DNA from: Branchiostoma lanceolatum | Lineage: Eukaryota; Chordata; Leptocardii; Amphioxiformes; Branchiostomatidae | Reading direction: 5' to 3' | Assembly: GCF_035083965.1 (NCBI RefSeq) | Contig: NC_089722.1 | Span: 17,812,642-17,876,641, forward strand | Length of the DNA stretch: 64,000 nt | In this document: positions 2,510 through 40,864 of the stretch, piece by piece | Layout of the letters: every line of letters starts with the position of its first letter | Position numbering within the stretch: the first letter of the stretch is position 1 | The notes under the pieces: model-generated | The model's input: the letters and a program-made list of their open reading frames with translations, nothing else | Told to the model about the DNA's origin: nothing | The model's database searches: none | Position numbers and translations under genes: made by a program

Positions 2510-4398
2510 ATGACGTCCAGTGACGAGAAGAAAGTTCTGCCCTCCTATGAAATGGGAATGGGCGGCGTCTCTCCGGATGAGATTGCCATGATCAAGGTTT
2601 GTTGAAGTACCCACTTTCTCAAGCGAAGAAATCTACTCTAATGCCTTCTGAAAGTGATACAACAGTTGTATGGAGGGGAATTGGCGTAAAGAGCACGGGA
2701 CATAATTCTTCTGAATGCTGTTAACTACTGTTTCACTAGCTTGGCCCGGCATAGATGTTAAAACTTTTGCTACGTTCCGCAAGTTGACTTTGAGATCTTT
2801 TCTTCGATATAACTATCTAAAGAGCTCTTGGTCGACGGTCAGACAGTGCATTTCCCCCCAACAATAATCTGCTTTACTGACGGACGTCCTTCTTTCAGAG
2901 AGAGGCACAGGCGAGCAGGCTGCATCGCCTGACGATCCCGCTTGCAGTCGCCTCTGTGATTGTGATTCTGCTGGCGGTCGGCGGCACCCTTCTGGGACTG
3001 TACCTCACCCGAGGCCAGGGCTCTGTTGCCAGGGTAGGTGTTTGTAGCCAATTTGAGTTAAAGATACCCTACATAGTGGTGTCAACTTGTTTTGCATTTT
3101 AACCGTCTTTGGGCATCATTGTCTTAGATTTTGGCAAACACATTTTGGAAAGGGAATTTGATTAAAGAAACCTACTCCATAATTTTTATCAAGCCTTGAA
3201 ACTGAAAGTTCCTTAGAAGTCATGATCATATTTATCACATTTTCTCCCACAGCGTTCGTTGGAATTCCGGGTCAACGGCCAGGAGTTGCACGAGACCGTT
3301 GAGACCGACAAGGAGGCCAACACCGACGCCTTCTGCACCGAGAGCGCCAAGGCGGGGGGCTGTGTCATGTACGACCACAATGAGGTGAGAGTGTGCAATT
3401 GTATGTCTTGTGTTGTGTTGTTGTGTTGTCTAACTTGTATATATTCATTTACAGATATCTATACATGCATAATCCGTAAATAACCAGTACATAACCGTCT
3501 CTTGAACTATGTACTTAGGGCTTGAAGGCGTTCAAGTTCACCGGCCGAGAAACCTGCTACATCATGCAGGAGTCAGACAGGGAAGCCAGACAGGCAACGA
3601 AAATGGCAAAGCACCTGGAGGAAGAAAAGGTAGTATATTGTATTTCCATTTAAAACTAGATGGAAAACAGATTTGATTTGATGGATTGTTGACACAGAAT
3701 GTGCCAAAATGTGCCGTCCCATCTTCATAATGTATGCGATGGTTTTTGCAGCCAAGTTTTAAGAAATGCAACTTGACTAGTGCAAGAAGTATTATCAAAC
3801 CTCTTATATCTATTTATTCTTGATACAGGAAGGATCGTTGCAGCATGCCAGGAGCGGCGGAGACAGGATGATGTCCCTTGATGAGGACCGTACTGACCTT
3901 CCCGGTCTGAGTGAGAAGCTGGATGATTTCTGCGGAGACCTGGAGCCACGCTGGGCCAAACTCACCCCAGCCCCGCATGACAACCAGGATGAAGCATCTG
4001 GTGTGGAGATGATCGTCCCAGCCGGTAAGATAGCAAAAAATTAACGCTAAGTCATTGCCTGCTATCAGCGTCTGACATTGTCTCTCATTTCATTTGGATG
4101 GATAAGAAAGCATTATTTAGAACATTACAGATTGTGATTTTCCACCATTTCAACTTTTACTCAGTTAACTGAAGGGACCACCCTAAAGATTAATAAATGA
4201 ATAGATAGATACAATGCTATGAAATATCACTTATAGCCATGGGGTTGGTACCTTGTGAATTTACCATCAAGCTCTTTAAACTTGAACTGATATTTCTTTT
4301 TTTACTCTCCAGTTGGTGCTTCATCTGTTGACCGTGTCAAGCGTGGTTGGTTCATCAACATCCGTATTACTATCTCCATCCGCATTCGCTTCCGGTAA
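2510..4398 (+). CDS. BRICHOS-domain type II membrane precursor 1, Cys-free C-terminal peptide
   Basis: Coding exons are 2510-2596, 2899-3033, 3253-3384, 3519-3629, 3829-4024 and 4313-4398. All have GT-AG junctions with compatible phases and give 248 residues. Residues 1-39 are cytosolic and 40-64 form one membrane segment with no signal peptide, so it is type II. Residues ~75-195 resemble BRICHOS, with the family's conserved Asp (D115, just before 'GLKAF') and two Cys (C131 in 'TCYIM', C190 in 'DDFCGDLEP'); exon 4 adds C102 and C111. The last exon encodes a linker, the dibasic site K230-R231 and 17 residues, GWFINIRITISIRIRFR, then the stop. BRICHOS domains are known to chaperone beta-prone peptides cut from their own C-terminus, and annelid arenicin precursors use this plan. 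An antimicrobial role is inferred from architecture and charge. Paralogues lie at 8293-10041 and 36204-40673. Confidence 0.85.
4345..4395 (+). other. Predicted mature peptide of BRICHOS precursor 1
   Basis: Seventeen residues follow Lys-Arg at the end of the precursor. From residue 4 on, Ile/Phe alternates with polar or Arg residues, giving one hydrophobic and one cationic face as a beta strand. There are four Arg, no acidic residue and no Cys. Arenicin-type peptides known from BRICHOS precursors are disulfide-closed hairpins, so lack of Cys is unusual. Release after K230-R231 by a furin-like protease is inferred. Confidence 0.65.
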
Positions 4399-4515
4399 TA
4401 ACGTCAGCTATGGAAGCAATCTGTTTCTGTATTGCCGAGCAGTACATCATTCCCTGCTTGCCTTTTATGAACACTATCAATCAGCTGTCTTTGATTTTTT
4501 TCAGATTGATATAAC

Positions 4516-4521
4516 AATAAA
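4516..4521 (+). terminator. Polyadenylation signal of BRICHOS gene 1
   Basis: AATAAA lies 118 bases after the stop codon. A second AATAAA at 4918-4923 could serve as an alternative site. Confidence 0.5.
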
Positions 4522-4524
4522 GAA

Positions 4525-5735
4525 GCTGTTGTAACTATTGTAAATACAAACTAAAAAATGCAATTTTATTCATCTGTTAAAACTTATGCTTATTTTTTGG
4601 TGGCAAAGGACAGCGGCGTTAGCTTGAGTAGAATTGATGGTGTGGCCATCAATGCCAAGTGATTGTGATTTATTAACGAGTCTGGTGTCTGGTGTGAATA
4701 AGCTGGGATATGGAGACCTTCATGAGTGTTATATAGTTGTCGTTATTTGTGTGAACGTTCCTCTGTAGGATTACAGTACAGGTAATGTCACTTGTAAGTA
4801 ATAAATAACAACCTTCATTTAAATCCGTGTGTAAAGGAGAATTAAGGCTCCGGTAAAAAAGGATCAAAAATGGTTGTCTGTCATAAAACATCAAACAACA
4901 ACCTTTTATCACCTTTCAATAAAGAAGTAGGTCTTCAAATACATTGAACTTTGTAAACAGACATGGTGGTCATTTGACGGTTTTGAAACTGACTGCTTTC
5001 TGAGTGGTAGCGGTCATTGTCATTTCTATTGCACTGTATGCTTTTTCGCACGATTGTTGTAGTCCAGATGTCAACAAATATCTCGTTACTATAAATTCAG
5101 AGGGGCATTGGTAAATCTGTTGTTAAGAAAGGCAGAAATCTGATAGAACTGCCGAATGACAAGATTTGAATGAAGATTTTGCGATAGAATATGAAGGTTG
5201 GCAGAAAAAGTTGGAAGTGACTTGATGTATCACTACTGTTTGTCGTATTAAAAAGATTCAAATGCATAAAATTTGTGTGGTCTCTGTCGATAGCTTTACA
5301 ATTTCAGCATAAGCATTTCTAGAATGATGATACAAATAAATTGGTAAGAACTATAGAAAATATTAGAGGAATAACAAGAGAATGATACCATTTGATTTAA
5401 AAATATTCTATAATGAGATGATATAATAATAGCACTGGCCGTTCTTTAGATTCTGAAACCCAGAAAAGTTGAGATCTTTAGTTTGTGACTTTTCCTTCAA
5501 GTTGGCAAAGTTTCAACAAATTGATGTTAGCCATTTCACATCAATGTAGCAGGAGATCCAAAACGCCCTCTCGTGTCTGTGTTTTGTTGTGAAAAATTAT
5601 TGATATTCAGGTGAACTTTCAAGAAATAAACACTCAGAACCTTCGCCCACTCGATGAATTTTTCGGTGGTTATAGCAAATGACCAGGCGTTATTACACCA
5701 TATACACCATATAGGGTTGGTCATTAACCCTTAAT
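4525..5735. other. Intergenic region after BRICHOS gene 1
   Basis: No gene seen. It holds a second AATAAA (4918), the direct repeat copy 5205-5395, and at 5640-5735 half of the foldback element found whole at 38756-38940 (shared 'gtggttatagca', 'gaccaggcgtta' and 'caccatatacacc'). Confidence 0.5.
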
Positions 5736-5739
5736 TAAT

Positions 5740-6425
5740 CAATTTCAAAAAGCTGTTCCTTACTGCACTAGAAACTCTTTTTGAAATTACCGTTGCCGTA
5801 AAAGGAATCTTACGGCAAAAGGAACGGCCGTTGAATTACAGGGAAACAGTTTGACACGTGCACAGTAAAACTTGTTTTCAACTAAAATGTCACTCAAAAG
5901 TCTTACTCAGCTGTTGATAACATGTTTATCAGGGCGAAACAAGTTTTAAGTTTCACCTGTTTACACCGCCCGTGAAGAAAACACCTGTTCAACAAAGGCG
6001 TCTGGGGTGAGACGTCTCGCCGAGGTCACAGAGCTGAAGCTTTTGTTTTCAGGGTTACCTGCGTTCATTACAGATATCTGTACTACGGTATCACAAGATG
6101 ATGGCAACATTTCAAGCTAATACTGATGAACACGCATGACATAGTTGAACAAAATCGGCAAGGATAGATGCAGTAGTTACAATTTAGAAGTAGAAAGTAA
6201 GGTGAAATAGGAACAGCCGTGTAACTGTACAGAAACAGATTGCCCATATTTTTTGTCAAGCCATGTTTGTCTTCTAAAGCCATCTGCAGTGCCACGTGCC
6301 CAGTCAATCTTGTTTTCAACTAAATGTCAGCTGTTGACAACTTCATCATCCGAGCATAACACTTCCTGAAAGTTCTCAGGTTCATATGTTTACACCTATG
6401 CAGACCCTTTCATGCACGTGGCCTG
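5740..6425. repeat. Dispersed repeat block, inverted relative to 1130-1340
   Basis: Positions 5940-6110 are the reverse complement of 1140-1300, and 6340-6420 repeats the terminal 'cacttcctgaaagttctcag' motif again. Two overlapping, partly deleted copies seem to be present. No coding capacity was recognised. Confidence 0.55.
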
Positions 6426-7469
6426 GAGTAGCTCTCGGCACAACAGTTCGGCACGACGTCACACCTAATACCTTGTCAGGCAGGTCGTTTCTTGAGAAGC
6501 ACTCTAAACAGTCAATGAAACCTGAGATCTTTGAGGTAATCTTGCAATCTAATAGGTAACTTAGGCCCCATGGCCACGGGACAGAGACCGTAGCAGCCGG
6601 TTAAAGAGTTTATCAGTTTTTTTTGTCGCTCAATTGTCGCCCAACGACCGACGACTCAGTGGAAGGGGGGTATCAGCCTTCGTTGAGAGAACATCAGCAA
6701 CCATACAGAGACCGTAGAGGGTTCATTGAGCGCTTATTGTATGATTAATAGAGAAACCAGCTATTCACTGACAGTCTCAACGGCACTTTTAAACGAGACG
6801 TTTAAAGCCTCTATTGCTCCATTTGAAGCTTGCATAGACAAGTCGTATGCTGATTGTGTCAGGCTTACACCACATCGTATTTACATGTTCACTGTTGACC
6901 TAGAGGTTAGAGCTGCCATTCAGGCCCATACTAAGTGTTACTTGATAGGTGTCTTGACTTTCAGCATGCCACAATGGAAACATGAGCAGCCGACAACAAG
7001 CAGGTTACGTCACTGAACATGACATTGTTTTGTTAGTGTAGTTCTGTGCAGGTGTTAAAGTCTGTGCCAACATTTCCATGGAAGATATAGATCAAGTTGC
7101 GGTTGTTTTGAAGCTCATTGACAGGTGGTTAAGTGGCACTTGCAACTATTGGACCCACTTTTCAAATGATAGGACGAAGGAATAGAGGAATTGTGTATTT
7201 TGATGTATTGTTATTCACAGTCGAGATTCTATGCACTTAGTCACCGGAGATATGTGGATACCTGCATATCTATTCAACATGCAGGTAGAAAAACACTGCC
7301 TTGAGGTCAACGTCTTAAGGCCGTCCACGAGGAAATGGAGTTGTGCCAGAAATCATCTCTTCGCGGAAAAATGCAACTTAGAAACTCCCCTTTGTATTGT
7401 TGTGGTAGAATTCGTAACTGGATATCTTGTTTTTAACCAAAGTCAAAGAGGCCTTTTGTTTGAACATGA
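6426..7469. other. Upstream region of BRICHOS gene 2
   Basis: Only short open frames with no recognisable product are present. A frame running 7231-7635 crosses the TATA box and the predicted donor at 7558, so it is not taken as a gene. The interval is treated as promoter-proximal DNA. Confidence 0.4.
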
Positions 7470-7477
7470 TATAAAAG
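7470..7477 (+). promoter_or_regulatory. TATA box of second BRICHOS gene
   Basis: TATAAAAG is followed about 80 bases later by a donor (tttaaag|gtagga at 7558). This matches the promoter layout of the first gene and predicts a non-coding exon of roughly 7498-7557. Confidence 0.65.
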
Positions 7478-7497
7478 GGAGTGCTTGTGGCCACTCC

Positions 7498-7557
7498 AGA
7501 GAAGACCGTCTGCAGCGGACCTCTGAAAACGTACTTCTCAGCAAATCAGATTTAAAG
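7498..7557 (+). other. Predicted non-coding exon 1 of second BRICHOS gene
   Basis: This short interval lies between the expected start site and a good splice donor. The next exon begins about 8281 after a pyrimidine-rich acceptor and holds the start codon at 8293. Boundaries are inferred by comparison with gene 1. Confidence 0.45.
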
Positions 7558-8292: not shown

Positions 8293-10041
8293 ATGACATC
8301 CAACGAGGAGAAGAAGACCCTGCCCCCTGCCGAGATTCTGGTGGGAGGAGTTTTTCCCGACGAGATCGCTGCCATCAAGGTGCTTAAAGTTTGGGCATTT
8401 CTCTCAGTTCCATATTCTTTATCTAAATAACCACTAAGATAGTTGTAAAAGATTGAAAGACAGTTGAGTTTTTTTAACAACACTTTTCCTACATTGTTTT
8501 CTCTTGGTGACACTTTTATGCTGGCATTCCTATGCAGAAGAAGGCCCGCGGAGAAAACGCTAGGCGTCTGAAGATCGGCATTGCTGTCGGCAGCGCGCTG
8601 CTGGTGATATTTGTGGTGGTTGGGGGAACCTTCCTGGGCCTTCACCTCAACCGAAAACCCGCCGTAGTGACGGTAAGGTCATGACTTTTGCTATGATACG
8701 TCAACAAATCATGTTATCTTTGACCCTATATCAGTTGATAGTCTTGAGATCATTGTCTGTTCCCTATGCTTACACTATACATTCATTACTACAGCGCTCG
8801 GTGAAACTGGTGATAGAGGATGAGATCATGGAAGAGACTGTGGAAGTGGACAAGGAGAGAGACACGGAGACTTTCCGTACGGTCAGCTCTAATGGGACAT
8901 CTTTCGTCATCAGGGATATGACAAATGTAAGTTGATGTGATGATGGTTATCGTGGAGTTATTCATTTCGTACTAATTTATGTGCATAACTTTATCATGAT
9001 GACCTTATTTGTCTACATAACTTGCTTGTATCGTTGCATCTTCAGGGCCTGTCAGCCTACAGGTTTGATGGAGACGACAAGTGCTACATCCTCTACGAAG
9101 ATCTTGAGGAGTCCAAGGGCACTGAGGAACTGTCGGAAGACCTGGAACAGATGGAGGTAAGTTGTATGCATTTATTGAGTTGATGAATACACTGCAAATG
9201 TATACGTACACTGTACGTGAAAGAGCAAGGCATTCAACGCTGATTGCGGAACACCGTCTTTTGTGATCCTATCAAACAACGAATTTTTTTTTTCTCCTTG
9301 TTGTTGCAACCAGGAGGGAGAACTCGATATTGCCGAACGCCGTGAAGAGACGTTTCTATATGTAGACGAAAACCGTGGCCAGGTGGAGTGGTCTGAGCTG
9401 AGTGAGAGCATGGCGGAGTTCTGTGGTGGCCTGGCGACCCACTGGGCCGTCAAGTCAGCCTATGAGCCCACTCCTACTCCTACTCCAACGGCGGTGCCTG
9501 GGGGGGAAGATCGGGACCCTACACCGGTGATGGAGGTTCTCCCTGGATCCAACGGTAAGCATTCACATCACAGGAGACAAATTTCTTCAGTAAAACATCC
9601 TTTATAAGAAACCCTTCTCTTGGTGGTTGTTTTGAAGACATCCTTTTAGTATTTGTTACTACACAATGCATTTTTTGAACACCACTTTCTATATCAGCTT
9701 CATTTTTTTGATTACTTGATTTCTTCTCAATCCCTCACCAAGGGACCAATGCAGTGCAGGAACGTGAAAAACGTGCCATTGGTCAAGCGGTCTGTAGATG
9801 GGTGTTCAGACAAGTCTGCAAATGGGCATGCAGGGAGTCGTGCTCGAAGCGCCGCCGTCGTCGGGATCTGCCGGAGGAAGCCCTGGGACAGGAGCTGCAG
9901 CTGAAGAAGCGCGTCAGGCGCGGGTGGTTTATTGATTTTAGGAGGGTGGTGGACGATGTGGTGCGCTTTGTCTGCAGGGCTGTCTGCGGTTGGGGGTGCA
10001 GCATGGTTGGCACATTTGCTTGCAGTTTCGTGCCGTTCTGA
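8293..10041 (+). CDS. BRICHOS-domain type II membrane precursor 2, two Cys-rich C-terminal peptides
   Basis: Coding exons are 8293-8379, 8538-8672, 8795-8926, 9046-9156, 9314-9554 and 9743-10041, giving 334 residues. The first four exons have the same lengths and phases as gene 1. A cytosolic N-terminus is followed by one membrane segment (about residues 40-65). The BRICHOS domain has D115 ('IRDMTNGLSAYR'), C131 ('KCYIL') and C192 ('EFCGG'). A Thr-Pro repeat (PTPTPTPT) forms a linker. The last exon is far longer than in gene 1. After EREKR (ends 246) comes a 24-residue peptide with four Cys, then KRRRRR, an acidic spacer, KKRVRR (ends 295) and a 39-residue peptide with four Cys. The second begins GWFIDF, like the GWFINI of gene 1. 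Processing and antimicrobial function are inferred from the family plan and basic sites. Confidence 0.85.
9775..9846 (+). other. Predicted mature peptide 2a (24 residues, four Cys)
   Basis: It lies between Lys-Arg and a run of one Lys and five Arg. Cys occur at peptide positions 7, 15, 19 and 23, so the spacing is C-x7-C-x3-C-x3-C. It has Trp-9 and Trp-17, basic residues at 8, 12, 16 and 20 and one acidic residue. Two disulfides are possible. Confidence 0.6.
9922..10038 (+). other. Predicted mature peptide 2b (39 residues, four Cys)
   Basis: It follows KKRVRR and runs to the stop. Cys fall at peptide positions 18, 22, 26 and 34, i.e. C-x3-C-x3-C-x7-C, the mirror order of peptide 2a. The N-terminal half is amphipathic with Arg and Asp pairs and starts GWFIDFRR, related to the gene 1 peptide. 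Confidence 0.6.
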
Positions 10042-11915
10042 GCTTGCTGCAGTTAAGAATAAGGTGGCATTTCTAAGTAAACTTGAAATCTTCAAACCCT
10101 TTATCCATGCCATTGAGATTAAGAAGCAAAATGTCATTTTTCATTTCTTTTGGTGATATTAAAATGATACAAGATGAACCTCTTCCTTGTAGAGTCATAT
10201 TTGTGCGTGTGTGTGTGTGTGTGTGTGTAACTGTGTATGTGTCTATGAGCTTACATACAGTGTAGATTATCAACTTACAGAAATAATACTGAAAACAAAT
10301 GAACATGGATGCTGAGTCATTTCATGTGCCTGTAATAAGTCAGTCAGTGACAAGGTGATCTGAGAATTCGAATGATTTGCTTGGATTAAAGTCTCCCAAA
10401 TTCCAGCTCTCTTTATTTTACCCCTACAGTACAGCCAGACTAGCAAGTGATGCTTGTATAGCTGTTTGTTGAATTCGATTAGTGTTAATCCGGGATCTAA
10501 GCCTTGATCTTCTTGTAATGGACAACCTTTGTGCTGTGGGCTGCATCACGTTTGCCCCTTGGCGCTTGTGTGGATACAGTGCGTAATCGAGCAGAGCATT
10601 CGCAGCGTGTTGAACTCTATGCAGGATTGTTTTAAAATGAATTCCATGCAAATCTGTTATATGTCAGGTTTTGAGAGTGTATGATGTCTCAATTGACAGG
10701 AGAATCGGAAATATTCTAAGCCGACCTCGAGCATTATTCATTTCCTCAAAGTTCTCAGTTTCACCTGAATATCAATAGTGCTTCCCAACAAAACACAAAC
10801 ACAAAGAGGTCGTCTCGGATAATTAGAATTAACCTTCTGCTGTGAAATTAGCGGGTCAACATCACTTTATTGAAAGTTTGCCTTTCGCACAAAGAAAAGT
10901 CGCAAAGTAAAGAATAAAATTTTTCCAATTTCAAAATCTAAAGAAATGACAATGTTATTCGAATACAGGGCAAATTCCATTATGCAATGTTTTGATAAAC
11001 TGTTGGCAAAAGGTATTTCTTTGGTTTCAAACAGCACCACTCTCCAGTTCTCCCTGTGATATTTCTCTATAGTTGTTACCAATTTAATCGCATTATCACC
11101 CTAGAAATATTTATGCTGAAATGATTGAATTATAGACAGAGACCACACAAATTGAATACATTTGAATTTTTGTAATAGCATCAGCAGTAATGAAACACAG
11201 AGTCATATTCAACTATTTCTCCCAAATTTCATATTCTATCGCAAAAATCTTCATTCAAATCTTATCAATATGCTTTTTTGTCAGACTTCTGCATATCACG
11301 AACTATGACCTACAGATTTATCAATGGCTCTCTGAAATTTAAGTACCAGTAACGAGAGGTTTGTTATAAGGACATACATATAAGGACCAAAACAAGTTTA
11401 TCGAGCGAAAAGCATGCATTTAAGTATGACATCATTCTTTTTATTTCTTATCAAAATATCATAGCGTCATCACGTTGAGAAGTCAGAAGCTACAAATGTA
11501 AAAGTTAGAAATAGCAAGGTCATCTCATATTCTTTACATTTGTACAAACTGTCAAAATGTTCACAGAACAAGTCTAATATTCACATCTGGGGTAAATACG
11601 TCTGTGCAAATAGCGTAACCTGCCAAGCCTTGAGTCCAGCCTTGTTATATATTAGCTTTGGTCCGCTCCGAACGGTCGCAACCCCGCTCTGAAGCGACCA
11701 TTGGGAGCGGACCAAGTCTTACAAGATGGACTCCAGACTATAACCTGCTTTAAAGATGAGAGAAGGTTTTACAGTAAGGTCCGAGAGTCACAAATTATAC
11801 AGTTCAAAGCAATCTGCTTCAGATTCTTGATTTTACACACAGTTATGACGTTTGAATTAACACACTCTGCAAAGAAAGAATAACGGAAAACAGAGGGCTT
11901 CAGGCCTCGCACTGT
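10042..11915. other. Intergenic region between BRICHOS gene 2 and the tectonin gene
   Basis: It contains a short (GT)n run at 10203-10229, pieces of dispersed repeats (10738-10850 related to 17070-17150; 11085-11240 inverted copy of the 840-1040 repeat), and a short inverted repeat at 11655-11720 ('ttggtccgctcc' and its complement). No exon was recognised. The two convergent genes on either side presumably end into this gap. Confidence 0.45.
11655..11720. repeat. Small inverted repeat (hairpin)
   Basis: The arms 'ttggtccgctcc' and 'ggagcggaccaa' flank a ~40-base loop. It is likely the end pair of a very short foldback element. Confidence 0.5.
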
Positions 11916-12105
11916 ATGCCCGTAGCCAGGATTTTGCTTGGGTGGGTTCTTCTTACTCAGAGGGACCAGCGAGCGCCGCAGGTGCGAGGCTTGTGCCTAA
12001 CCCCTAGGCGGACGTCTAGGCGGACCTCTAGGTGGACCTCTAGGCGGACCTCCGAGCGTGTGTGGGGGTTCTTCCGAACCCCCCTTGGCTACGGACATGC
12101 ACTGG
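11916..12105. mobile_element. Short TIR element (MITE) fused to the last tectonin exon
   Basis: The ends are near-complementary ('gcccgtagccagg' on the left; 'ccttggctacggac' on the right). Inside is a run of four imperfect ~12-base repeats built on 'ctaggcggac'. No coding capacity of its own is seen. The element begins immediately after the last conserved residues of the minus-strand tectonin repeat, and the open frame continues through it. Confidence 0.55.
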
Positions 12106-17970: not shown

Positions 17971-17989
17971 GTCTCAAAGAAAATATAGA

Positions 17990-19174: not shown

Positions 19175-19182
19175 ATGTTTAC

Positions 19183-30300: not shown

Positions 30301-30622
30301 CACACACACACACAAACACAAACAAACATACTAACACACACACACACACACACAGAAAACACACACACACACACATGCACACACACACACGCACACACGC
30401 ACACACACACAAACACACGCAAAACACACACACACATGCACACACACAAGCACACAAATACACACACATGTACACACACACACACAGACACACACACAAT
30501 CATGCACACAGACATACACACAATCATGCACACACACACATGCACACACACACACAAACAAACACACACACACACACACAAACACACAAACAAATACAAG
30601 CACACGCACGCACGTACGCACG

Positions 30623-30681
<59 letters not shown>

Positions 30682-31831
30682 TCGTGCATGTGCACACTAT
30701 ATCTTCCTCCAGATATTGTCTGAAAAATATTGGCATACACGACATATATTTGACTGGCTTAGATATCTTAAGATGCGTTTCTTCAGCCCCCCAAGGCAAG
30801 CTGCCACTGGTCTGGATTGGACTCAAAAGAGACGTAGCTGGACAGCTGAAGTGGACTGATGGGTCGCCTGTGTCGTACACCAACTGGGCTGCGGGTCAAC
30901 CTTCAAACAATGGGTTACGCGGCGGAGAAGATTGTGTCGGCATGTACTCCAAGGTGTGTTTCAGATACGTCTCTCGACGTCTCTCTAATTTCCTCTCCTA
31001 TCCTCCACTCTCCTCCACTACCCTCTCCTCTCATCCACTCCCCCTCCACTCTCCTCCACTACACTCTCCTCTCCGCCACTCTCCTCTCCTCCACTCTCCT
31101 CCCCTCCCATCTCCTCTCCTCCACTACCCTCTCCTCCACTCTCCTCCACTACACTCTCCTCTCCGCCACTCTCCTCTCCGCCACTCTCCTCCCCTCCCAT
31201 CTCCTCTCCTCCACTACCCTCTCCTCTACTCCCCTCCCATCTCCTCTCCTCCACTCTCCTCTCTCCCACTCTCCTCCCCTCCCATCTCCTCTCCTCCACT
31301 ACCCTCTCCTCCACTCTCCTCCACTACACTCTCCTCTCCGCCACTCTCCTCTCCGCCACTCTCCTCCCCTCCCATCTCCTCTCCTCCACTACCCTCTCCT
31401 CTACTCTCCTCCCCTCCCATCTCCTCTCCTCCACTACCCTCTCCTCTACTCTCCTCCCCTCCCATCTCCTCTCCTCCACTACCCTCTCCTCCACTCCTCT
31501 ACACTCCCATCTCCACCCTCCCCTCCCCTCTCCACCCTCATCTCCTCTCTCCCACTCTCCTCTCCTTCAATACCCTCTCCACTCCCATCTCCCCTGTGGC
31601 ATTTGTCGCCATGTAAGTTTTGATCTTCCCCGCTTTCTTTTTCCTTTGTCAGTCTGACAGCGTAACGCTGTTTTAGCATGTCTTTCCACAGGCATTCTAA
31701 GCACATGTCCATTCTTTTCATAGAGAGGCAAAGATCATTGGTGGTTCACCGTCAAAGAAAGGAACACAGGACAGTGGAATGATGTGACATGCGGCGGCAA
31801 GTATCCCTACATTTGCAAGAGGCCCAAATAG
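21395..31831 (+). CDS. Type II membrane C-type lectin with collagen-like stalk and five EGF modules
   Basis: Exons are 21395-21758, 23343-23497, 25402-25453, 26180-27073, five 111-base EGF exons (27613, 27863, 28242, 28620 and 28986 onward), 29763-29939, 30787-30953 and 31724-31831. Phases agree throughout, giving about 823 residues. The N-terminus is cytosolic, Pro/Arg-rich, with a membrane segment in exon 2 ('[17 protein letters not shown]'). Then come a short coiled stretch ('[13 protein letters not shown]'), collagen-like repeats, five EGFs of the DINEC type and a C-type lectin domain ('WIGL', 'WTDG', 'WND', 'CGGKYPYIC'). The Ca2+-site triplet expected as EPN or QPD reads QPS, so sugar choice is unclear. 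The plan recalls membrane scavenger and collectin receptors (collectin-12, MARCO), but the EGF block is an addition. The start could instead be ATG 21479. Many introns are swollen by repeats. Confidence 0.8.
23540..23806. repeat. Dispersed GC-ended repeat, relatives at 13660-13840, 31915-32155 and 46970-47130
   Basis: These blocks share 'ggcgacctcgctgcgacc' type ends and an AT-rich middle with 'gata/aatcat' stretches. Some have terminal complementarity ('gctggacccgcgac' against 'gcggctccagtg'). They are probably copies of a foldback family specific to this genome. Confidence 0.45.
23806..24128. mobile_element. Foldback element, 'cctgtcacac' family
   Basis: The left end 'agcccctgtcacacatg' is complementary to the right end 'catgtgtgacagggcctt'. 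The inner arms also pair ('cccgaccgtctcc' with 'ggagtggtcggga'). It lies in an intron of the C-type lectin gene. A relative sits at 25507-25742. Confidence 0.65.
24165..25401. repeat. Degenerate ~45-60-bp intronic minisatellite containing acceptor-like motifs
   Basis: About 25 diverged copies of a unit close to 'ggaaatatcacaactgaccc' + 'ttattgttggtactctgg' + 'tgttttag' run up to the exon at 25402. Each unit includes a 'ttttag|g' resembling a splice acceptor, and the array's last copy supplies the real acceptor and first codons of that exon. Confidence 0.7.
25507..25742. mobile_element. Foldback element, 'cctgtcacac' family
   Basis: The ends 'agggccctgtcacacttg' and 'caagtgtgacaggggctta' are complementary. 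It lies in the intron before the collagen exon. It has no coding capacity. Confidence 0.65.
26274..26600 (+). repeat. Near-identical 27-bp coding repeat in the collagen-like exon
   Basis: Twelve or so copies of the unit encoding GPPGQVKPP occur. Two third-position variants (ggg or gga in the first Gly-Pro) alternate in a fixed 1-in-3 order, so the true recent unit is 81 bp. Copies are almost free of other changes, which points to recent expansion or homogenisation. Confidence 0.8.
27360..27480. repeat. Short TIR-type repeat, inverted relative at 34755-34832
   Basis: The segment beginning 'tgtttacacaatctct' with 'gagcgcgatttagt' is matched in reverse complement at 34755-34832 ('actaaatcgcgctgc' ... 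'agagattgtgtaaacac'). It lies in the intron between the collagen exon and the first EGF exon. Confidence 0.5.
27986..28105. mobile_element. Foldback element after EGF exon 2
   Basis: The ends are 'ctagcctgggtgccaccct' and its near complement 'ggatggcacccaggctag'. It is inserted about 13 bases after the splice donor. Related copies lie after EGF exons 3 (28365-28480) and 4 (28746-28865). EGF exon 1 has the same flanking intron without the element. Confidence 0.75.
28365..28480. mobile_element. Foldback element after EGF exon 3
   Basis: Same family, orientation and offset from the donor as the copy at 27986, which supports duplication of exon and element together. Confidence 0.75.
28746..28865. 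mobile_element. Foldback element after EGF exon 4
   Basis: Third copy of the family at the same offset from its exon. The ends 'caggcctgggtgccac' and 'gtggcacccaggcta' type sequence are slightly more diverged. Confidence 0.7.
29100..29762. other. Intron between EGF exon 5 and the lectin domain
   Basis: Nothing beyond ordinary AT-rich intron sequence was recognised. Confidence 0.4.
30052..30250. mobile_element. Long foldback element with a duplicated left arm
   Basis: The arm 'gaggggtagttttgtccgg' occurs twice on the left (near 30083 and 30135) and once in reverse complement on the right (near 30197). The flanks 'ctccaagc' and 'gcttggag' also pair. It lies in the first lectin-domain intron next to a long (CA)n tract. 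Confidence 0.7.
30259..30680. repeat. Long (CA)n microsatellite
   Basis: About 420 bases of CA repeats with scattered interruptions, in an intron of the C-type lectin gene. Open frames in it (His-Thr or Cys-Val repeats) are artefacts of the repeat. Confidence 0.9.
30985..31600. repeat. Polypyrimidine minisatellite (CTCC-rich)
   Basis: About 615 bases, almost all C and T on the plus strand, made of variants of 'ctctcctccacta' and 'cccctcccatctcct'. It follows the second lectin-domain exon, so this intron is nearly all repeat. Such tracts can form triplex DNA. Confidence 0.85.
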
Positions 31832-34155: not shown

Positions 34156-34161
34156 GATATA

Positions 34162-34232
34162 TCATATATCATTATACACAGGTGTGTACAATTAAAACGC
34201 TGGCAGCGTTTTAAGTGTACACACCTGTGCTG
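34162..34232. repeat. Perfect short palindrome
   Basis: 'cacaggtgtgtaca' ... 'aaaacgctg|gcagcgtttt' ... 'tgtacacacctgtg' pairs almost completely, with AT-rich 'atatcatatatcat' before it. It is probably a minimal foldback element. Confidence 0.6.
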
Positions 34233-36159
34233 ATGAAAAACGCTTCTAAAAAGAAGATAGAGTGTCTTGTGTTTGTCGGTTCTCTAAGTGGTCCTTCTTA
34301 GTATTGAAGTAGAGGAGTCGTTTAACCAAAGATATAATGTCCTTGGTAGAACGTAACAAAGTCGACAGCGGTTAACGTTACCGGGCCAAGCTGGGAGTAG
34401 GGGGGGAGTAAATGTTCGCATCAGCTGCCTACAAGTATTCAATTTGGCGCTTGGAAATTTACCGTAGCAGATATGATCGTCATATATCAAAGTTAATATA
34501 CTCATCTAACGTAGCCGGAATATAATCTTACAAAGCTATGTGGGTCGACGCTGTCGATGTGTTAGCCAGTTGGTTTGACTACGCTTTGGCTTTCCAAAGA
34601 TCTATCAGGGAAAACACACTTCTTGTATTCCAGACGTGCTCTCCGTATTTGTGTTTATGAATAAAAGCTGATGAAGGTGAATTGTGTATTTAGCGAGTAT
34701 CTATTCTCACGTATCCTCCATTATAGTAAAAAAAAAGTTATCTTACCATTCAGCCTGACTAAATCGCGCTGCGAGCGGCCCGCCCGACAGAGTAGGGGGT
34801 CAATGACCCCCGGCCAGAGATTGTGTAAACACAGGCTTTATCACTATTCAATGGCGTTGATCTACGGACAGCATGATCAATCTTTTTTTGCAACGAAACG
34901 CAGAAAATCATAGTATATGATATAATCTGACCGACCACCCTAAGGCCAGCACTATTTACGAGCTTAATCCAAGGTTCTGAGGCTCATTTGTAGAGTCTAC
35001 TTTTAACTGGGTCGACTAGTGGAAAATCCGCCAGAAGGGCGCTATGTAATTAGGCTACCGTACAGCATGCTTCAAGACGACTAAGAGTTTTGCCTGAGGC
35101 TTCCAGAACAAAAAGAGTGACATTCCATGTCAGACTGATGCGTGTGGAGATTCAGGTAACATTTAGATCCAGGTAGTTACAGCGTGCTGACAACAGGTGT
35201 GGCACATTGTCCTGGTCCTGGAGTCAGAGTAAGGTAAGAAAGACTCAATGTTTAGAGAACAGTGTGATATGTGTTCTGTGAACAGTGCTCTGCTCAGAGA
35301 ATGTTATAATCCGGACACTCTGAGTCATTCCACTACAGTACCTTCTGGAGACATTATGTTAACCTTGCTTTAAAAGATAGTATAAGTTAGGTCATAGGAA
35401 TATTGTATTGTATCTTTTATGTAGTCTTTCTTCTTTGTATATTGTATCATATTGGCCAGGTGCCTGAAATAAAGTTGAAATGAAAAAAAATGATATCAAC
35501 GCTTGGACCTTTGCAAGATGTTGATTTTGTATCCGCACTACTAATCCTAAAAAGCGTTTCAAAATCCTCTCTGACCTATAGTGGTCGTCGCAAGACTACG
35601 TGTACTGCTACTTGAAGAAGTAGTAGTAACCAAGGAGGTTATGTCCCCTAGAATACTGTATCTATAAAACGTATAATGTCATATCTTTTGCAAGCACAAG
35701 ATGCGAAAGAAAAGAAACTAAAAGTAGGTCACGCAAGCCTAAAATCTCAGTGATCAACATGTGATGTTCACTTGTGTATGCCCTCCAGGCGCTGGGATTG
35801 GAGCACAATGGTTTGGCCTATGTCGCCTAGAGAAAGCTGTAAACTGAGACCAAAATTGCTGTTTGTGCTCTGTTGTCACGCTCTCTTTACAGGTGAAAAT
35901 GAGAACTTTCATGAAGTAACAGATCAATTTTCAAGATACCCTGGCACCATTTGAGGTCTGGCCGGGCAAAAGGATATCTTTGCCGCCTGGATATTCTTTG
36001 TTACTTGGTAGTAGTTTGCCAATCGCGTAAACGTACTAACGGGTGCCAAAGTTTCTGTCCCGAAGAGAGTTTAGCCAAAGTACAGAAGACTGGGTGCCAG
36101 GGTACTTTCAAGAGGAAAGGGCCTAGGGGAAGATTTATAATCGAATTGCTTTTTTTTAG
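34233..36159. other. Upstream region of BRICHOS gene 3
   Basis: It contains the inverted partner (34755-34832) of the 27360 repeat. At 35165-35234 a stretch ending in a consensus donor (agtaag|gtaaga) could be a non-coding first exon, but no TATA box precedes it. The region near 35400-35500 ends in a short A-run and may be the 3' tail of a retroposed element. Confidence 0.35.
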
Positions 36160-36203
36160 CTCAGAACGGTAAAAGCCGGAGACGTGGTGACACCTCCGTT
36201 AAG

Positions 36204-39200
36204 ATGGCGTCCTGCGCTGAAATGAAAGCCCCGCCCTCCGCGGAGGCTACAGTCGGCGGGGTCTTTCCGGACGAGATCGCTGTTATCAAAGTAAGAAGAC
36301 GCCTTTCTAGAATATCAATCAGAACTTCGTGAATTTTTTTTTAAAACTTTATTCAGATAATCAAAAGATTCAATACAGAAACATGAAACAAAAGAATACA
36401 GTTGTACATTACGCTAACAAATGAGTGTGCAACATTTAGAAGATCGGCTTTGTGGTGCTCCAGCGGCCATATAGTCAGACTATCTATATCTATATCCGTA
36501 TAGCCAGTATAACCCAGTTTACCTTTTGTATATTTTCTTGTCGTTTAAATCATACTTTTACATCAAGGGTTACAAAAATTCAATTTTGGTCGCTGTACGG
36601 TCGCTTAGCGATCTAGTGAAAAGGCTGCCTAAGACAGTTTTGAGTTCAACGTTTTTTATTTCCACAGAAGCATGCCCAAAATGACAGGCGCCGTCGGCTG
36701 AATATTGCAATCACAGCGGCAGTCGTCGTGATGGCTGTTGTGATGTTAGGCGCCATACTGATGAGTACCCGTCTCTCACGACACTCCGTGGTCACGGTGA
36801 GCAATCCATTCTTTCTTATTTTCTTTTTACCCGCTTTCGTTGTCAACATATTTCGCTCAGGTTTGTTGTTTGAATATCCATTTGACAAGAAGGAACGCAT
36901 ACGAATTAAGATTGTTGACACAAATGTGCCATAATTCAAAAATTAAATTTATGATGCTGCAATTTAAACGAAACCCTTGCGTTAACAACAGCAATTTGAT
37001 ACGTCACAATGCATCATGATAACGTGTAATCAGGTTTTTAGAGCCGGACTTCTTTCCTCTGCAGTGTTCGCTGAACTTCTGGACGGGAAAACAGCTCTTG
37101 CATGAGACCGTTCAGACCGACAGAGACGCCGGGACGGACGCCTTCTACACCGAGGGGTCTACAGGGGGAGGTGCGGTCATGTATGACCATCACAAGGTAG
37201 GTGTGCGTTCGTTCATAACAGGGTGCGTTTCTGTCGACACCAGCCAATGCATGTATCTACCAAAACGTCGGCACACAAAAAAGAAATAAAACGCAAAAAC
37301 AATTGTTTAGTTTAGAAGTAGCGATAGTTGATGAAATGAACTTTGTGTTTATTTCATAACTATGTACTTATTATTATCATTATCTCATTTCCTTGTTTTC
37401 TTGCAATTAGCCTCCAGGCACTAATTTGCGATAAAGTTATCATTATTACTTGTAAGCATGGTACAATTAAAGGTATGTCCTTGTAGCTCAGCTTCCCAGT
37501 TGAGTTTCTGGTTCCAATCAGTTGGTAACTGGGAGACCCGATTCAAATCCTGGGACAGGACATCCTGGTTGGGGCTGCACCCGTCTTTCGGAAGGGACGT
37601 AAAATGGGTCCCGTGTTTAAGAAGTGTCTCGAGTATGTTTTAGAAGGGAAATAGCGATTCCTCCCTATAGAAATATACCCTGCCACAGAAACAACAAGGA
37701 ATATTGCTGACCCATGTGCTACTAGGCACTGCAAGGTGAAAAGCAACGCACTAGTTAGAAACCCATATCCATCAGCAACTTCATTTCAAAAACAACTTAT
37801 TCTTTTCTTTTCAGCTGATGAAAGCATTCAAGCTTTCACGAAGTAAAACTTGCTTCATCATCGATGAAACACCAAAGGAGAAAGATGGCGTGAAGGAGAC
37901 TGCAAAGGAATTGGAAGAAAAACAGGTATCATGAAAGACAGCTTCAGTCAGATATGCCTGTAAAACATGTCGGTATCGTAATGTAGCTCATCTCAAAGGT
38001 TTCACAACAGAAGACATGTTGTATCATGGAGTTCCATGCAGACAAGGCATGCTCAAATCTGAGATATTCAAAACAAATCAATTGCAAGTAACTAAATTCG
38101 CGATTCAGACAGTACCTTTCATCTGTGACTGACGAAAGGTTGTTGATGCTATCTGAAACGTCTGACTTTTCAGAGAATGTATCAAGTTGCTTGATTTATT
38201 TTGTATAATGTAATGTTCTTCCTGGATATCTAACCTTTACTGGCGCTCAAATATTTTGATTTGCATTCAGGACGGCTCCGTGCAGTTTGCTCAGACCGGA
38301 GGCGCCCTGCTGATGTCTGTGGATGCAGACCGGCCGGACCGGCCCGTACTGAGTGAGAAACTGGAGAACTTCTGTGGACAACTGGAGCCGCGCTGGGCTA
38401 AACTCACCCCGGCTACTGAGGAAGAGCAGGAAGGAGACAGAGTGGAGATCATCATGCCTGCCGGTAAGACAGCCGTAGCAGAAATCTACATCTAGATTCT
38501 ATGCTTATCGTATCCAGTGTCTATTGCATATCCACCCGGAAAATAATACTAGTAATTTTCAACTCAATAATCGTTTAAATTTCCCAAATCACAGACGTAC
38601 ATAAGCAGGGGAGAGGACCACGTGCCTCCCTCTGAATAGAACACGGCTTATTACGCTTTTAGAAGAAAATTATTACATATGTACACTTAGTCTATTATAA
38701 CGTTACATGATTATCACATTATCTGTAGAATATTATTTCTCGCTGGACGGTTCGTTAATTAAGGGTTAATGACCCGCCCCGAGGTGTATATGGTGTCATA
38801 ACGCCTGGTCATGTGCTATAACCACCGAATAAAACCACCGAGTGAGCGAAGCGAACGAGGTGGTTTTATGAGGTGGTTATAGCACATGACCAGGCGTTAT
38901 GACACCATATACACCGAGGAACAGGCGGGTCATTAACGTAATTATCACATAGCCTATCCAAACTGACCCATATAAGAGAGAAAAATTTCTGTATAATACA
39001 TAGATTCTTTATTTAATACTATACATGTAAAATCAATCCATTGTACATATGATCTTCATATAATCCAATGTAAACAAGCGGTGACTTGTCTTCGAGCCCA
39101 CACGGTTATAAATTGACAGGTTGTTAGACGCCTAGGTGTGGTAAGAATCGTACATGTTTACCTCCCCTTTGCCGCAAGTTGTAGTTTCCCCGGATAATTA

Positions 39201-40673
39201 TTACTCAAGCCGGAAAAAAATCCCACAGAAGCGTACACATATCGAGCCGAGATCATTGTAGGTACAAACCTGTAAGAATTTGGGCGATTTTGACCGTAAT
39301 TCTTTCGATGCCAACACATCGGTTTCGGGAAGTTACGTGTTCGTGACTTGGGCCATGGGGAGGGGGGCGTTTGTTTTGAACAAGACGACATCACTTTGCC
39401 AGTAATATTTTTAATTTTCGTCAGGTAAACCCCCTCAGAAACGTGAACATACCGGCCTGGGGTCCTCTTGGGTAGAAACGTAGGAGGTTTCATGGGCGAT
39501 TTCTTTGTCTGTCATGATTTGCTACTTCGGGAAATACAATGTGATGAGTGGGGAGGGGACTCTGTCAGTCTGTGTGCCCGCTGCTTCTTGTTGGTCACAC
39601 TCGTCAGCTTCCTTGCCCCTCAACTGCTGATGAAGTATGTCCCTGGGCGTCTTCCCTAACTTCCCATGACCCGAAAACTGACTCTAAGTCGGCGTCTGAC
39701 AGTTCCTCGACGAAAAACTGTGGTACTCTTATGGCGGACGTTCGAACGCGTTCTGCGAACGATCGCCTGATCTGGGCCGGTTCCACTTTGACGGCGGGGG
39801 TGTGAAAAATATTGTTTTTAGTCCTTCCGTTTGAATTTTACTTGAATTGAATTTTTTTCCTTTTTTCGTGAATTCTTCATGTATTCTCAGGACATTTGGG
39901 GGAATTTTAAGACAATTAAGATATTTTAAACAAGGTTAAGAAAAAGATTCATCAAAAAGATACCCCCATCTACAAAATGCAACGGTTTTGTTATGTCATG
40001 ACGTCAATAAGTGGTGTGTTATGGCGTGATAACAGACCACTTATTGTGGGCAATGGAGGCTTCTGATTGGTCGACGCCATCTACCTATGTGATAATTGTG
40101 TTTGTTTTTCTTATTAAAAACAATAAAATGTACATAGGCAGGGGAGAGCACCGCGTGCCTCTTCCTCAATAGGATACGGTTTGTTACACTTTTAGAAGAA
40201 AAGCAAATTATGAACATCTGTACAAGGACAAAAACAAAACTACCCTGCTATTCATTATACCATAGAAGTGAACGTGTTGTATTCTAATGAAAATGAAATG
40301 AAACAGGAACACGGTAGCTACATATGTATATACGGATGGATACGAAGCTAGCTCAAGCAAAGCACCAATAATTAACAAATAACCCAAGGATTTCACGAGT
40401 GACGTAGCCTGGAATCCAAACCTACTATATCTCCCAAGTCCCCTCTCCCTCTCTCTATTTGCTGAGAGGGAACTCGGAAGCTATAACAGGTTTGGATACC
40501 AGGCTACAAGTGACGCTCCTCTTTTAGGTCCTGTAACGGACGATCATCGGGACAAGCGGGGCATCATAATCCGCATCGTGAAGTGTGGTGACTCGTACTG
40601 CGTCGTTGTCATCATCTATGGCGTTGAGGAGGGAACTGTACCGACGTCGGAGGAACACTTGCTCAAACCTTAG
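36204..40673 (+). CDS. BRICHOS-domain type II membrane precursor 3, Ile/Val-rich hairpin peptide
   Basis: Coding exons are 36204-36290, 36668-36796, 37065-37196, 37815-37925, 38271-38463 and 40528-40673, giving 265 residues. Lengths and phases copy genes 1 and 2 (exon 3 is two codons shorter). The start codon follows an acceptor at 36159. Shared motifs include 'GGVFPDEIA' near the N-terminus, one membrane segment (about residues 40-60), C129 in 'TCFII', and C188 in 'ENFCGQLEPRWAKLTP', which matches gene 1. The last exon lies 2 kb away across two foldback elements but has a good acceptor (ctcctcttttag) in the required phase. It encodes a short linker, K227-R228 and a 37-residue peptide beginning GIIIRIVKCGDSYC. 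The peptide suits a beta hairpin and resembles the layout of Bri2's released C-terminal peptide. Function is inferred. AATAAA at 40743-40748 and 40774-40779 follow. Confidence 0.82.
37455..37745 (+). mobile_element. tRNA-derived SINE in intron of BRICHOS gene 3
   Basis: An A-box-like 'tagctcagcttcccagt' and a B-box-like 'gattcaaatcctggg' form a tRNA-related head. A body with 'cccgtctttcggaaggga' and 'cgtaaaatgggtccc' follows. The same body occurs in reverse at 49578-49830. Confidence 0.65.
38756..38940. mobile_element. Foldback element with ~85-base arms
   Basis: The left arm ('gaggtgtatatggtgtcata' ... 'tggttttat') is complementary to the right arm almost to the centre. The centre reads 'gagtgagcgaagcgaacgag'. 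A half copy lies at 5640-5735. No coding capacity. Confidence 0.75.
40404..40507. mobile_element. Foldback element, 'gtagcctgg' family
   Basis: The ends 'gtagcctggaatccaaacct' and 'aggtttggataccaggctac' pair. It ends about 20 bases before the acceptor of the last BRICHOS 3 exon. A half copy follows the 28S fragment at 57514-57560. Confidence 0.75.
40560..40670 (+). other. Predicted mature peptide of BRICHOS precursor 3
   Basis: Thirty-seven residues follow Lys-Arg. Two strands rich in Ile/Val (residues 2-8 and 15-20) flank Cys9-GDSY-Cys14, which would place a disulfide at a tight turn. A tail with four Glu follows, so the whole peptide is not cationic. Without the tail the hairpin has one Arg and one Lys. 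Whether the tail is removed is unknown. Confidence 0.6.
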
Positions 40674-40834: not shown

Positions 40835-40864
40835 TGTGTATGCATATGTGTGTTTGTGTGTGTA

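What the first reader, a model, noticed from the sequence alone, without database searches (positions are those of the whole stretch)
2510..40673. Three BRICHOS precursors with a constant chaperone part and a wholly different last exon
Seen: genes at 2510, 8293 and 36204 share exon lengths (87, 129-135, 132 and 111 bases) and the phase-1 junction into the last exon. The last exons (86, 299 and 146 bases) encode unrelated peptides after dibasic sites. Known: BRICHOS proteins (Bri2, proSP-C, annelid arenicin precursors) carry a beta-prone C-terminal client that the domain shields. Inference: this is a chordate family of BRICHOS-delivered defence peptides in which one exon is swapped or evolves fast.
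Basis: partly seen in the sequence, partly recalled or inferred. Interest (0 to 1): 0.9.

Follow-up and report, generated by a model that had tools for sequence, protein, structure and literature searches.

The report
Amphioxus BRICHOS-borne peptide precursor genes
Three neighbouring genes of the European lancelet each appear to make a membrane-anchored chaperone that carries a short, detachable peptide at its end, and the three peptides are of different structural types, which looks like a chordate version of the antimicrobial-peptide precursors known from marine worms.

Summary
The three genes are real: the spliced proteins equal database proteins of Branchiostoma lanceolatum letter for letter. 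All have six coding exons, phase-0 introns 1-4 and a phase-1 intron before the last exon. BRICHOS passes Pfam's cut-off in genes 1 and 2 but not in gene 3, a 48.5%-identical paralogue of gene 1. The last exons are not wholly unrelated: genes 1 and 2 share R-V-K/R-R-G-W-F-I at the cleavage site. Released peptides diverge faster than the chaperone in 9 of 11 chosen gene-2-type pairs, while gene 3's disulphide hairpin is as conserved as its chaperone. New here: gene-2-type last exons encode two peptides whose eight cysteines have mirror-image spacing, 7-3-3/3-3-7, kept in 14 of 15 proteins, predicting an antiparallel, four-disulphide, possibly two-chain helical pair. Gene-3-type relatives carry two different tail classes on similar chaperones; repeated exchange rests on one partial prediction. 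Antimicrobial function is inferred, not shown. New variant of a known kind: annelid BRICHOS-related peptides, with a link in principle to chondromodulin.

The parts
2510..2596 (+). gene 1 coding exon 1, cytosolic tail (aa 1-29)
   Evidence: protein equals P0001
2899..3033 (+). gene 1 exon 2, hydrophobic (membrane) segment
   Evidence: long helix here in the models of genes 2 and 3; gene 1 itself was not modelled
3253..3384 (+). gene 1 exon 3, linker and start of BRICHOS with Asp115
3519..3629 (+). gene 1 exon 4, BRICHOS with Cys131
3829..4024 (+). gene 1 exon 5, BRICHOS end with Cys190 and acidic linker
4313..4398 (+). gene 1 last exon: linker, KR site (4339-4344), peptide GWFINIRITISIRIRFR (4345-4395), stop
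   Evidence: amphipathic beta-strand moment, p 0.0005
8293..8379 (+). gene 2 coding exon 1
   Evidence: protein equals P0007
8538..8672 (+). gene 2 exon 2, membrane segment
8795..8926 (+). gene 2 exon 3
9046..9156 (+). gene 2 exon 4
9314..9554 (+). gene 2 exon 5, BRICHOS end plus Pro/acidic linker
9743..10041 (+). gene 2 last exon: KR site (9769-9774), peptide A, basic run, spacer, RR site (9916-9921), peptide B, stop
9775..9846 (+). peptide A (aa 247-270), Cys spacing x7-x3-x3
   Evidence: helix in model (low confidence)
9847..9864 (+). basic run KRRRRR after peptide A
   Evidence: translation
9922..10038 (+). peptide B (aa 296-334), Cys spacing x3-x3-x7
   Evidence: helix in model (low confidence)
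36204..36290 (+). gene 3 coding exon 1
   Evidence: protein equals P0023
36668..36796 (+). gene 3 exon 2, membrane segment
37065..37196 (+). gene 3 exon 3 with Asp113
37815..37925 (+). gene 3 exon 4 with Cys129
38271..38463 (+). gene 3 exon 5 with Cys188
40528..40673 (+). gene 3 last exon: KR site (40554-40559), hairpin peptide GIIIRIVKCGDSYCVVVIIY (40560-40619), divergent end, stop
   Evidence: two strands in model (low confidence)

Best explanation
These are three paralogous type II membrane precursors of secreted, host-defence-type peptides. Shown by sequence: a short N-terminal tail, one hydrophobic segment, an acidic part with a BRICHOS domain (gene 3 by homology), and a last exon that starts with a linker to a dibasic site and then encodes the peptide(s). 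Inferred: in the secretory pathway BRICHOS shields the aggregation-prone peptide until a furin-like protease cuts at R-x-K/R-R and releases it. Inferred: each subfamily has its own peptide type, an amphipathic beta-strand (gene 1), a one-disulphide beta-hairpin (gene 3), and a pair of 4-Cys peptides (gene 2). For gene 2 I propose nested pairing Cys1-8, 2-7, 3-6, 4-5 between antiparallel helices before the loop is cut out, giving a two-chain, four-disulphide peptide. Inferred: killing or controlling microbes is the likeliest role of genes 1 and 2; it is least certain for gene 3, whose tail is not cationic.
For: Exact gene models. BRICHOS in genes 1 and 2; Asp and two Cys kept; Pfam BRICHOS at E<=1 (not the curated cut-off) in 20 of 23 family proteins. 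Net charge of the part before the last exon -14, -27, -9; after the first KR +4, +11, -2 for genes 1, 2, 3. The cleavage sites read RVKR, REKR and RVRR, RDKR (6), all R-x-K/R-R (furin consensus, recalled). Gene 1 peptide has a beta-strand moment (p 0.0005; relative P0003 p 0.00025; 68). Mirror Cys spacing in 14 of 15 gene-2-type proteins, 12 exactly and 2 with an extra Cys, loop 30-47 (52; about 0.0004 by chance for one random 36-mer with four Cys). Helices at A and B in the model. Between close paralogues P0009/P0011: chaperone 195/203, spacer 21/21, peptides 36/54 (53). Annelid precedents with the same layout, five of 13 also membrane-anchored, and with the peptide in the last exon of a gene with five introns.
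Against: No transcript, peptide or activity data. Gene 3 fails Pfam's cut-off and its tail has net charge -2. Gene 1's faster divergence is not significant for the one cross-species pair tested (11/16 against 181/217, p 0.13); 2 of 11 gene-2-type pairs show no significant difference. Gene 1's relative P0002 does not alternate (p 0.67, 52). Helical moment of peptide A is significant (p<0.05) in 5 of 14 and of B in 2 of 14; B of P0019 favours a strand (p 0.009). Model confidence is 45-70 in gene 2's peptides and 42-51 in gene 3's hairpin. Several of the 15 gene-2-type proteins are near-duplicates, so 14 of 15 is not 14 independent cases. NCBI's automatic names point to chondromodulin or surfactant protein C, not to defence peptides.
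Confidence: 0.62

Rival explanations
1. The genes, gene 2 above all, are lancelet relatives of chondromodulin-I/tenomodulin: the released Cys-rich piece is a matrix or signalling protein, not a defence peptide.
For: Automatic names 'leukocyte cell-derived chemotaxin 1-like' and 'CNMD'. ChM-I is a type II membrane precursor with BRICHOS, a furin site and an 8-Cys C-terminal part. Its cysteines 79, 83, 99 and 103 give Cx3C-x15-Cx3C, bond 83-99 is stated, and antiparallel stretches are joined by disulphides: the same nested principle (bond 79-103 is my inference).
Against: ChM-I's eight Cys are well conserved across species, while the lancelet peptides vary fast between most paralogue pairs. Cys spacing differs (7-3-3-loop-3-3-7), the loop carries basic runs, 10 of 15 tails end in Gly, and the genes form a multi-copy family.
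Confidence: 0.2
2. They are BRICHOS proteins of ordinary secretory or mucosal function (gastrokine or SP-C-like) and the fast tail is merely relaxed.
For: Naming 'surfactant protein C-like'; no nucleotide data from relatives, so selection cannot be told from relaxation. The stretch after gene 3's hairpin (identity 0.31) and gene 2's acidic linker (0.58) also diverge fast.
Against: Conserved dibasic sites, strand-like alternation, near-invariant Cys spacing and a hairpin as conserved as the chaperone show constraint on the tails.
Confidence: 0.13
3. Modular tail exchange: gene-3-type loci have alternative or exchangeable last exons, so one chaperone serves several peptides. (Compatible with the best explanation.)
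For: P0024 and P0026 agree at 97 of 101 residues in exons 4-5 but 14 of 45 in the tail. Two tail classes, hairpin (P0023, P0006, P0024) and W (P0004, P0005, P0026). With P0026 the core tree rejects either class as one clade (p 6.6e-7 and 8.9e-7).
Against: Repeated exchange rests on P0026, a 150-residue prediction that may be chimaeric (P0025 and P0017 look like mergers with neighbouring genes). Without P0026 the hairpin class already forms one branch (support 80/83) and one change suffices; the W class as a clade is then only weakly rejected (p 0.035). No W-type exon was found in the window.
Confidence: 0.3

Closest known systems
Annelid BRICHOS-related antimicrobial peptides (arenicin, alvinellacin, capitellacin, nicomicin, HfBRI series)
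   Same: BRICHOS, then dibasic site, then C-terminal peptide; some precursors membrane-anchored (PMC10745061 section 2.1); alvinellacin gene with five introns and the peptide in the last exon (PMC5431198 section 16); very different peptides on one chaperone type within one species.
   Different: Chordate; alvinellacin's peptide is nearly monomorphic while its chaperone diversifies, the reverse of most gene-2-type pairs here; no annelid example in the passages I saw has the mirror 8-Cys two-peptide tail (AmBRI-44a has four disulphides; its spacing was not seen).
Chondromodulin-I and tenomodulin
   Same: Type II membrane, BRICHOS, furin site, 8-Cys C-terminal part with disulphide-joined antiparallel stretches (PMC3492907, PMC11173128).
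   Different: Spacing, symmetry, further basic sites in the loop, Gly ends in 10 of 15, divergence and multi-copy arrangement. A review calls the two-member family vertebrate-only.
Plant alpha-hairpinins, 6C type
   Same: C-x3-C-x3-C / C-x3-C-x3-C on two antiparallel helices (PMC11591084).
   Different: Loop 30-47 instead of 4-20, extra outer Cys pair at x7, no BRICHOS, other kingdom: resemblance in principle, not kinship.
BjAMP1 of B. japonicum
   Same: The single cephalochordate antimicrobial peptide listed in a 2025 review (PMC11767717).
   Different: Not described in the passages seen as BRICHOS-related; I did not compare sequences.

Membership tests
BRICHOS superfamily (genes 1 and 2) | Pfam BRICHOS profile above its cut-off | tested here: met
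   25.9 and 32.8 bits against 25.
BRICHOS superfamily (gene 3) | Pfam BRICHOS profile above its cut-off | tested here: not met
   14.1 bits against 25, E 0.055. Placed by homology to gene 1 instead: 48.5% over 237 residues, E 7e-70.
BRICHOS superfamily | One Asp and two Cys, near-strictly conserved (PMC9627735) | tested here: met
   Asp and the second Cys invariant in the 23 proteins of A4, first Cys at 90% or more; all three residues present in genes 1-3.
BRICHOS superfamily | BRICHOS fold | tested here: inconclusive
BRICHOS-related antimicrobial peptides | Dibasic site between BRICHOS and C-terminal peptide | tested here: met
   KR in all three genes and invariant in the 15 sequences of A2; P0016, not in A2, lacks it.
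BRICHOS-related antimicrobial peptides | Cationic C-terminal peptide | tested here: inconclusive
   Genes 1 and 2: +4, +11; gene 3 tail -2, its hairpin +1: met for 1 and 2, not met for 3.
BRICHOS-related antimicrobial peptides | Antimicrobial activity | not testable with these tools
   No assay or expression data.
Chondromodulin-I/tenomodulin | Type II membrane layout, BRICHOS, basic cleavage site | tested here: met
   Gene 2.
Chondromodulin-I/tenomodulin | Cys positions of the C-terminal domain (Cx3C-x15-Cx3C core) | tested here: not met
   Gene 2: 7-3-3-43-3-3-7; nested principle shared, positions not.
Alpha-hairpinins (6C) | C-x3-C-x3-C-x4-20-C-x3-C-x3-C | tested here: not met
   Inner spacing matches, loop 30-47 does not.

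The most novel reading that the evidence does not exclude
Lancelets hold a chordate arm of BRICHOS-delivered defence peptides in which one chaperone type carries three different peptide folds, one of them a new class: a two-chain peptide made from a single exon and locked by four disulphides laid out as a mirror-image cysteine code (7-3-3/3-3-7). The disulphide-laddered end of vertebrate chondromodulin and tenomodulin could be a tamed descendant of such a peptide, which would tie worm antibiotics to vertebrate cartilage and tendon factors.
Probability: 0.25. Interest if true: 0.85.

Novelty: new variant of a known kind. Interest (0 to 1): 0.6.

Why it matters
BRICHOS-linked antimicrobial peptides are described from annelids; human BRICHOS proteins are studied for lung disease, dementia and cartilage. 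A lancelet family with the worm-type layout and a chondromodulin-like disulphide principle would join the two and give a natural series of different clients for one chaperone fold, making it possible to ask which part of the chaperone adapts to which client. The mirror cysteine spacing is a concrete, cheap prediction to test. A 2025 review lists one cephalochordate antimicrobial peptide (PMC11767717), so three further types would widen that set greatly, if active.

Tried and rejected
Whole-genome search of the window's own assembly: none held. Alternative last exons: an acceptor-plus-open-frame scan of 4025-7500, 9555-12000 and 38464-41500 with filters on pyrimidine content and a dibasic site gave the three known last exons and five other weak frames that I judged chance; a motif scan of the whole window in six frames gave the known exons and two other places (6707, 58732) without a peptide-like continuation. 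A low-threshold tblastn of 26 tails against the window gave noise (I cut its output, so only its first part was seen). Nucleotide selection tests (dN/dS): not possible, no DNA of relatives in the collections at hand. PDB profile search: three proSP-C chains only, E 0.027-0.53, too weak alone. NCBIfam: one irrelevant weak match. Foldseek for gene 3: best rows are a sponge protein (EPD-BCP1) and fluorescent-protein barrels, E 0.007 and up; judged a common beta arrangement. Alternation count was not significant for gene 3's hairpin (p 0.85) nor for P0002 (p 0.67). The AU test that rejected the hairpin class at p 7e-67 was misleading, because P0025, whose tail is unknown, sat among the other rows; one search repeats it without P0025, with and without P0026.

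Rows dropped: the rate table for gene 2 type used 10 of the 16 proteins (P0017, a merged model, and P0018-P0022, divergent or partial, left out). The 11 pairs were chosen by me out of 45. Cys spacing used 15 of 16 (P0017 has no such tail). Structure alignments A3 and A4 held 22 and 23 of the 26 proteins.

Literature: ten searches. BRICHOS with amphioxus gave 5 papers, BRICHOS with Branchiostoma 5, BRICHOS with deuterostome and antimicrobial 3, amphioxus with chondromodulin 3. Of these I opened PMC2751770 and PMC11767717 (passages); the others were seen only as listings. PMC2751770 mentions a divergent echinoderm/amphioxus BRICHOS group in one sentence, with no peptide function in the passages seen. 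In what I saw, nobody describes these genes as peptide precursors; subscription journals and preprints are not covered. Seen as passages or sections only: PMC2751770, PMC5431198 (outline, abstract, section 16), PMC10745061 (passages, section 2.1), PMC6265681, PMC11767717, PMC11591084, PMC3492907, PMC11173128, PMC9627735.
Full report
What is there. The window is Branchiostoma lanceolatum DNA: each of the three spliced proteins derived here is identical over its full length to a database protein of that species (P0001; P0007; P0023), and the longest contig listed for each has the same length, 44,478,171 bases. Gene 1 has coding exons at 2510-2596, 2899-3033, 3253-3384, 3519-3629, 3829-4024 and 4313-4398; gene 2 at 8293-8379, 8538-8672, 8795-8926, 9046-9156, 9314-9554 and 9743-10041; gene 3 at 36204-36290, 36668-36796, 37065-37196, 37815-37925, 38271-38463 and 40528-40673. 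All lie on the + strand, all junctions are AG/GT, introns 1-4 are phase 0 and the last is phase 1.

Kinship of the three. By exon, shuffled-sequence z-scores are 6.2-21.2 for exons 1-5 and 3.8, 1.4 and 0.7 for the last exon. The last exons of genes 1 and 2 are therefore not unrelated: both continue the cleavage site as G-W-F-I-N/D-I/F-R. Gene 3's last exon shows no significant relation to them beyond the shared KR. Pfam's BRICHOS profile passes for gene 1 (25.9 bits, cut-off 25) and gene 2 (32.8) and fails for gene 3 (14.1). Gene 3 is still 48.5% identical to gene 1 over 237 residues and keeps the Asp and the two Cys of the superfamily (near-strict conservation of these three residues from passages of PMC9627735). 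AlphaFold models of genes 3 and 2 have a beta-rich lumenal domain with blocks of confidence up to 94 and 91 after a long helix that includes the membrane segment. Fold comparison puts proSP-C BRICHOS among the best rows, but tied with unrelated beta proteins, and Foldseek's listed rows for gene 3 lack it: compatible, not decisive.

Relatives. Three protein searches returned 26 proteins, all listed under Branchiostoma species or hybrids between them. No protein from outside lancelets reached E 0.1 in the profile search, which scored only the 7,992 candidates sharing most words.

Rates. In gene-2-type proteins (10 of 16) mean identity over 45 pairs is 0.75-0.86 from exon 1 to the end of BRICHOS, 0.58 in the Pro/acidic linker, 0.78 in the linker before KR, 0.51 in peptide A, 0.72 in the spacer and 0.61 in peptide B. 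So divergence is concentrated in the parts that would be released (and in the acidic linker), not in the whole exon. In 9 of 11 chosen pairs the peptides are significantly more divergent than the chaperone (uncorrected); the exceptions are P0008/P0015 (p 0.082) and P0012/P0015 (p 0.53). The sharpest case is P0009/P0011 of B. belcheri: chaperone 195/203, spacer 21/21, peptides 36/54 (p 2e-8). For gene 1, mean identity of the released part is 0.52 against 0.76-0.90 in exons 1-5 over three pairs, but the one cross-species pair tested, with P0003, is not significant (11/16 against 181/217, p 0.13). Gene 3 goes the other way: over its three hairpin-class pairs the hairpin has identity 0.80 against 0.45-0.81 in exons 1-5, though the stretch after the hairpin has 0.31; with B. 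floridae it is 18/20 against 149/216. The W-class tails of gene-3-type relatives diverge fast (0.42).

Three peptide types. All cleavage sites read R-x-K/R-R: RVKR in gene 1, REKR and RVRR in gene 2, RDKR in gene 3 (sequences; the furin consensus is recalled). Gene 1: GWFINIRITISIRIRFR has a beta-strand hydrophobic moment reached by 0.05% of shuffles, and its B. belcheri relative 0.025%; the third relative, P0002, does not alternate (p 0.67). Gene 3: GIIIRIVKCGDSYCVVVIIY reads as two strands around a Cys-GDSY-Cys turn; the model gives strands 227-237 and 240-250 at confidence 42-51. Gene 2: two peptides, each with four cysteines. The gaps between the eight cysteines are 7-3-3-43-3-3-7. The same mirror pattern is exact in 12 of 15 gene-2-type proteins and kept with one extra cysteine in two more; P0018 is the exception; the middle gap varies from 30 to 47. 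Some of the 15 are near-duplicates, so these are not independent cases. A tandem duplication would give 7-3-3/7-3-3; the mirror form is what nested cross-links between antiparallel segments need. A random placement of four cysteines in 36 residues gives 3-3-7 with probability about 0.0004. The model makes both segments helical (238-276 and 297-331, confidence 45-70). Helical moment supports this for peptide A in 5 of 14 and for B in 2 of 14 (p<0.05), and one B favours a strand, so strands cross-linked in the same order are not excluded. The middle gap holds basic runs (KRRRRR and KKRVRR in gene 2), so the loop could be cut out to leave two chains. In relatives 10 of 15 tails end in Gly and the run after peptide A reads CGKRRRR in 10 of 15 (sequences), both typical of amidated ends (recalled knowledge of prohormone processing); gene 2 of the window has neither.

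Tail classes in gene-3-type relatives. P0023, P0006 and P0024 carry the hairpin tail; P0004, P0005 and P0026 a different tail with DHRVKR and W/F/R-rich sequence. P0024 and P0026 agree at 97 of 101 residues of exons 4-5 and 14 of 45 in the tail. With P0026 included, the chaperone tree rejects both classes as single clades (p 6.6e-7, 8.9e-7); without it the hairpin class is one branch with support 80/83 and one change suffices. P0026 is a 150-residue prediction, and P0017 and P0025 look like predictions that merge neighbours. So at least one replacement of the tail on a similar chaperone is likely, and repeated exchange is possible but unproven. In the window no second last exon was found.

How it most likely works. 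Shown: hydrophobic segment, acidic BRICHOS part (net -14, -27, -9), dibasic site, tail (+4, +11, -2). Inferred from the BRICHOS and annelid literature: BRICHOS keeps the tail soluble, a furin-like protease releases it. Closest precedents are the annelid precursors: 13 in one worm with nine peptide families and five membrane-anchored precursors (PMC10745061 section 2.1), and alvinellacin, whose gene has five introns with the peptide in the last exon (PMC5431198 section 16). Alvinellacin's peptide is nearly fixed while its chaperone diversifies (abstract and section 16), so the two lineages would differ in which half evolves. The main rival is kinship with chondromodulin-I, which shares membrane type, BRICHOS, furin site, eight cysteines and disulphide-joined antiparallel stretches but not the cysteine positions.

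Verdict. A real gene cluster with an unusual output: new variant of a known kind. The strongest new point is the mirror cysteine code of gene-2-type tails; the weakest is the assumed antimicrobial role.

Noticed in passing
56927-57633, repeats about 57700-58620: Fragments of large-subunit ribosomal RNA (two Rfam matches) followed by tandem repeats of roughly 120 bases (by eye), apparently inside an intron of a Methyltransf_16 gene (exon within 60815-61222; first exon near 50710-50786 guessed by eye): an rDNA insertion or an assembly join.
   Followed up: partly
12664-14441, - strand: Tectonin-domain gene (two open frames match Pfam Tectonin) between genes 2 and 3, with EGF-like exons further on (by eye).
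   Followed up: partly
21460-31830, + strand: Gene that reads by eye as membrane segment, collagen-like run, EGF repeats and C-type lectin domain. Exons 29750-29938 and 30765-30953 match the lectin part of B. floridae model P0017 (62% and 67%), which is joined to a gene-2-type BRICHOS protein: the neighbourhood seems shared between species.
   Followed up: partly
46310-48885, + strand: Four stretches matching the channel part of B. belcheri model P0025 (Pfam PF00520, name cut at 'Voltage-gated h') at 66-97% identity. P0025 joins gene-3-type BRICHOS exons directly to this channel, so the order BRICHOS gene then channel seems shared. I read it as a proton channel.
   Followed up: partly
38464-40527: The long last intron of gene 3 carries a 73-base direct repeat (38597-38669, 40130-40202) and an inverted repeat (38765-38937), part of which recurs downstream of gene 1 at 5641-5738: mobile-element-like sequence just before the peptide exon.
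   Followed up: no
exon 1 of all three genes: The N-terminal tail is well conserved between paralogues (17-19 of 29 identical, motif GGV.PDEIA.IK), as if it had a sorting or signalling role.
   Followed up: no
P0019, P0021, P0022: A divergent gene-2-type branch whose peptides begin FFGLLHKLF / IFGLFHHVL or FFGLVHHLL, reminiscent of amphipathic helical fish and frog peptides (resemblance recalled, not tested).
   Followed up: no
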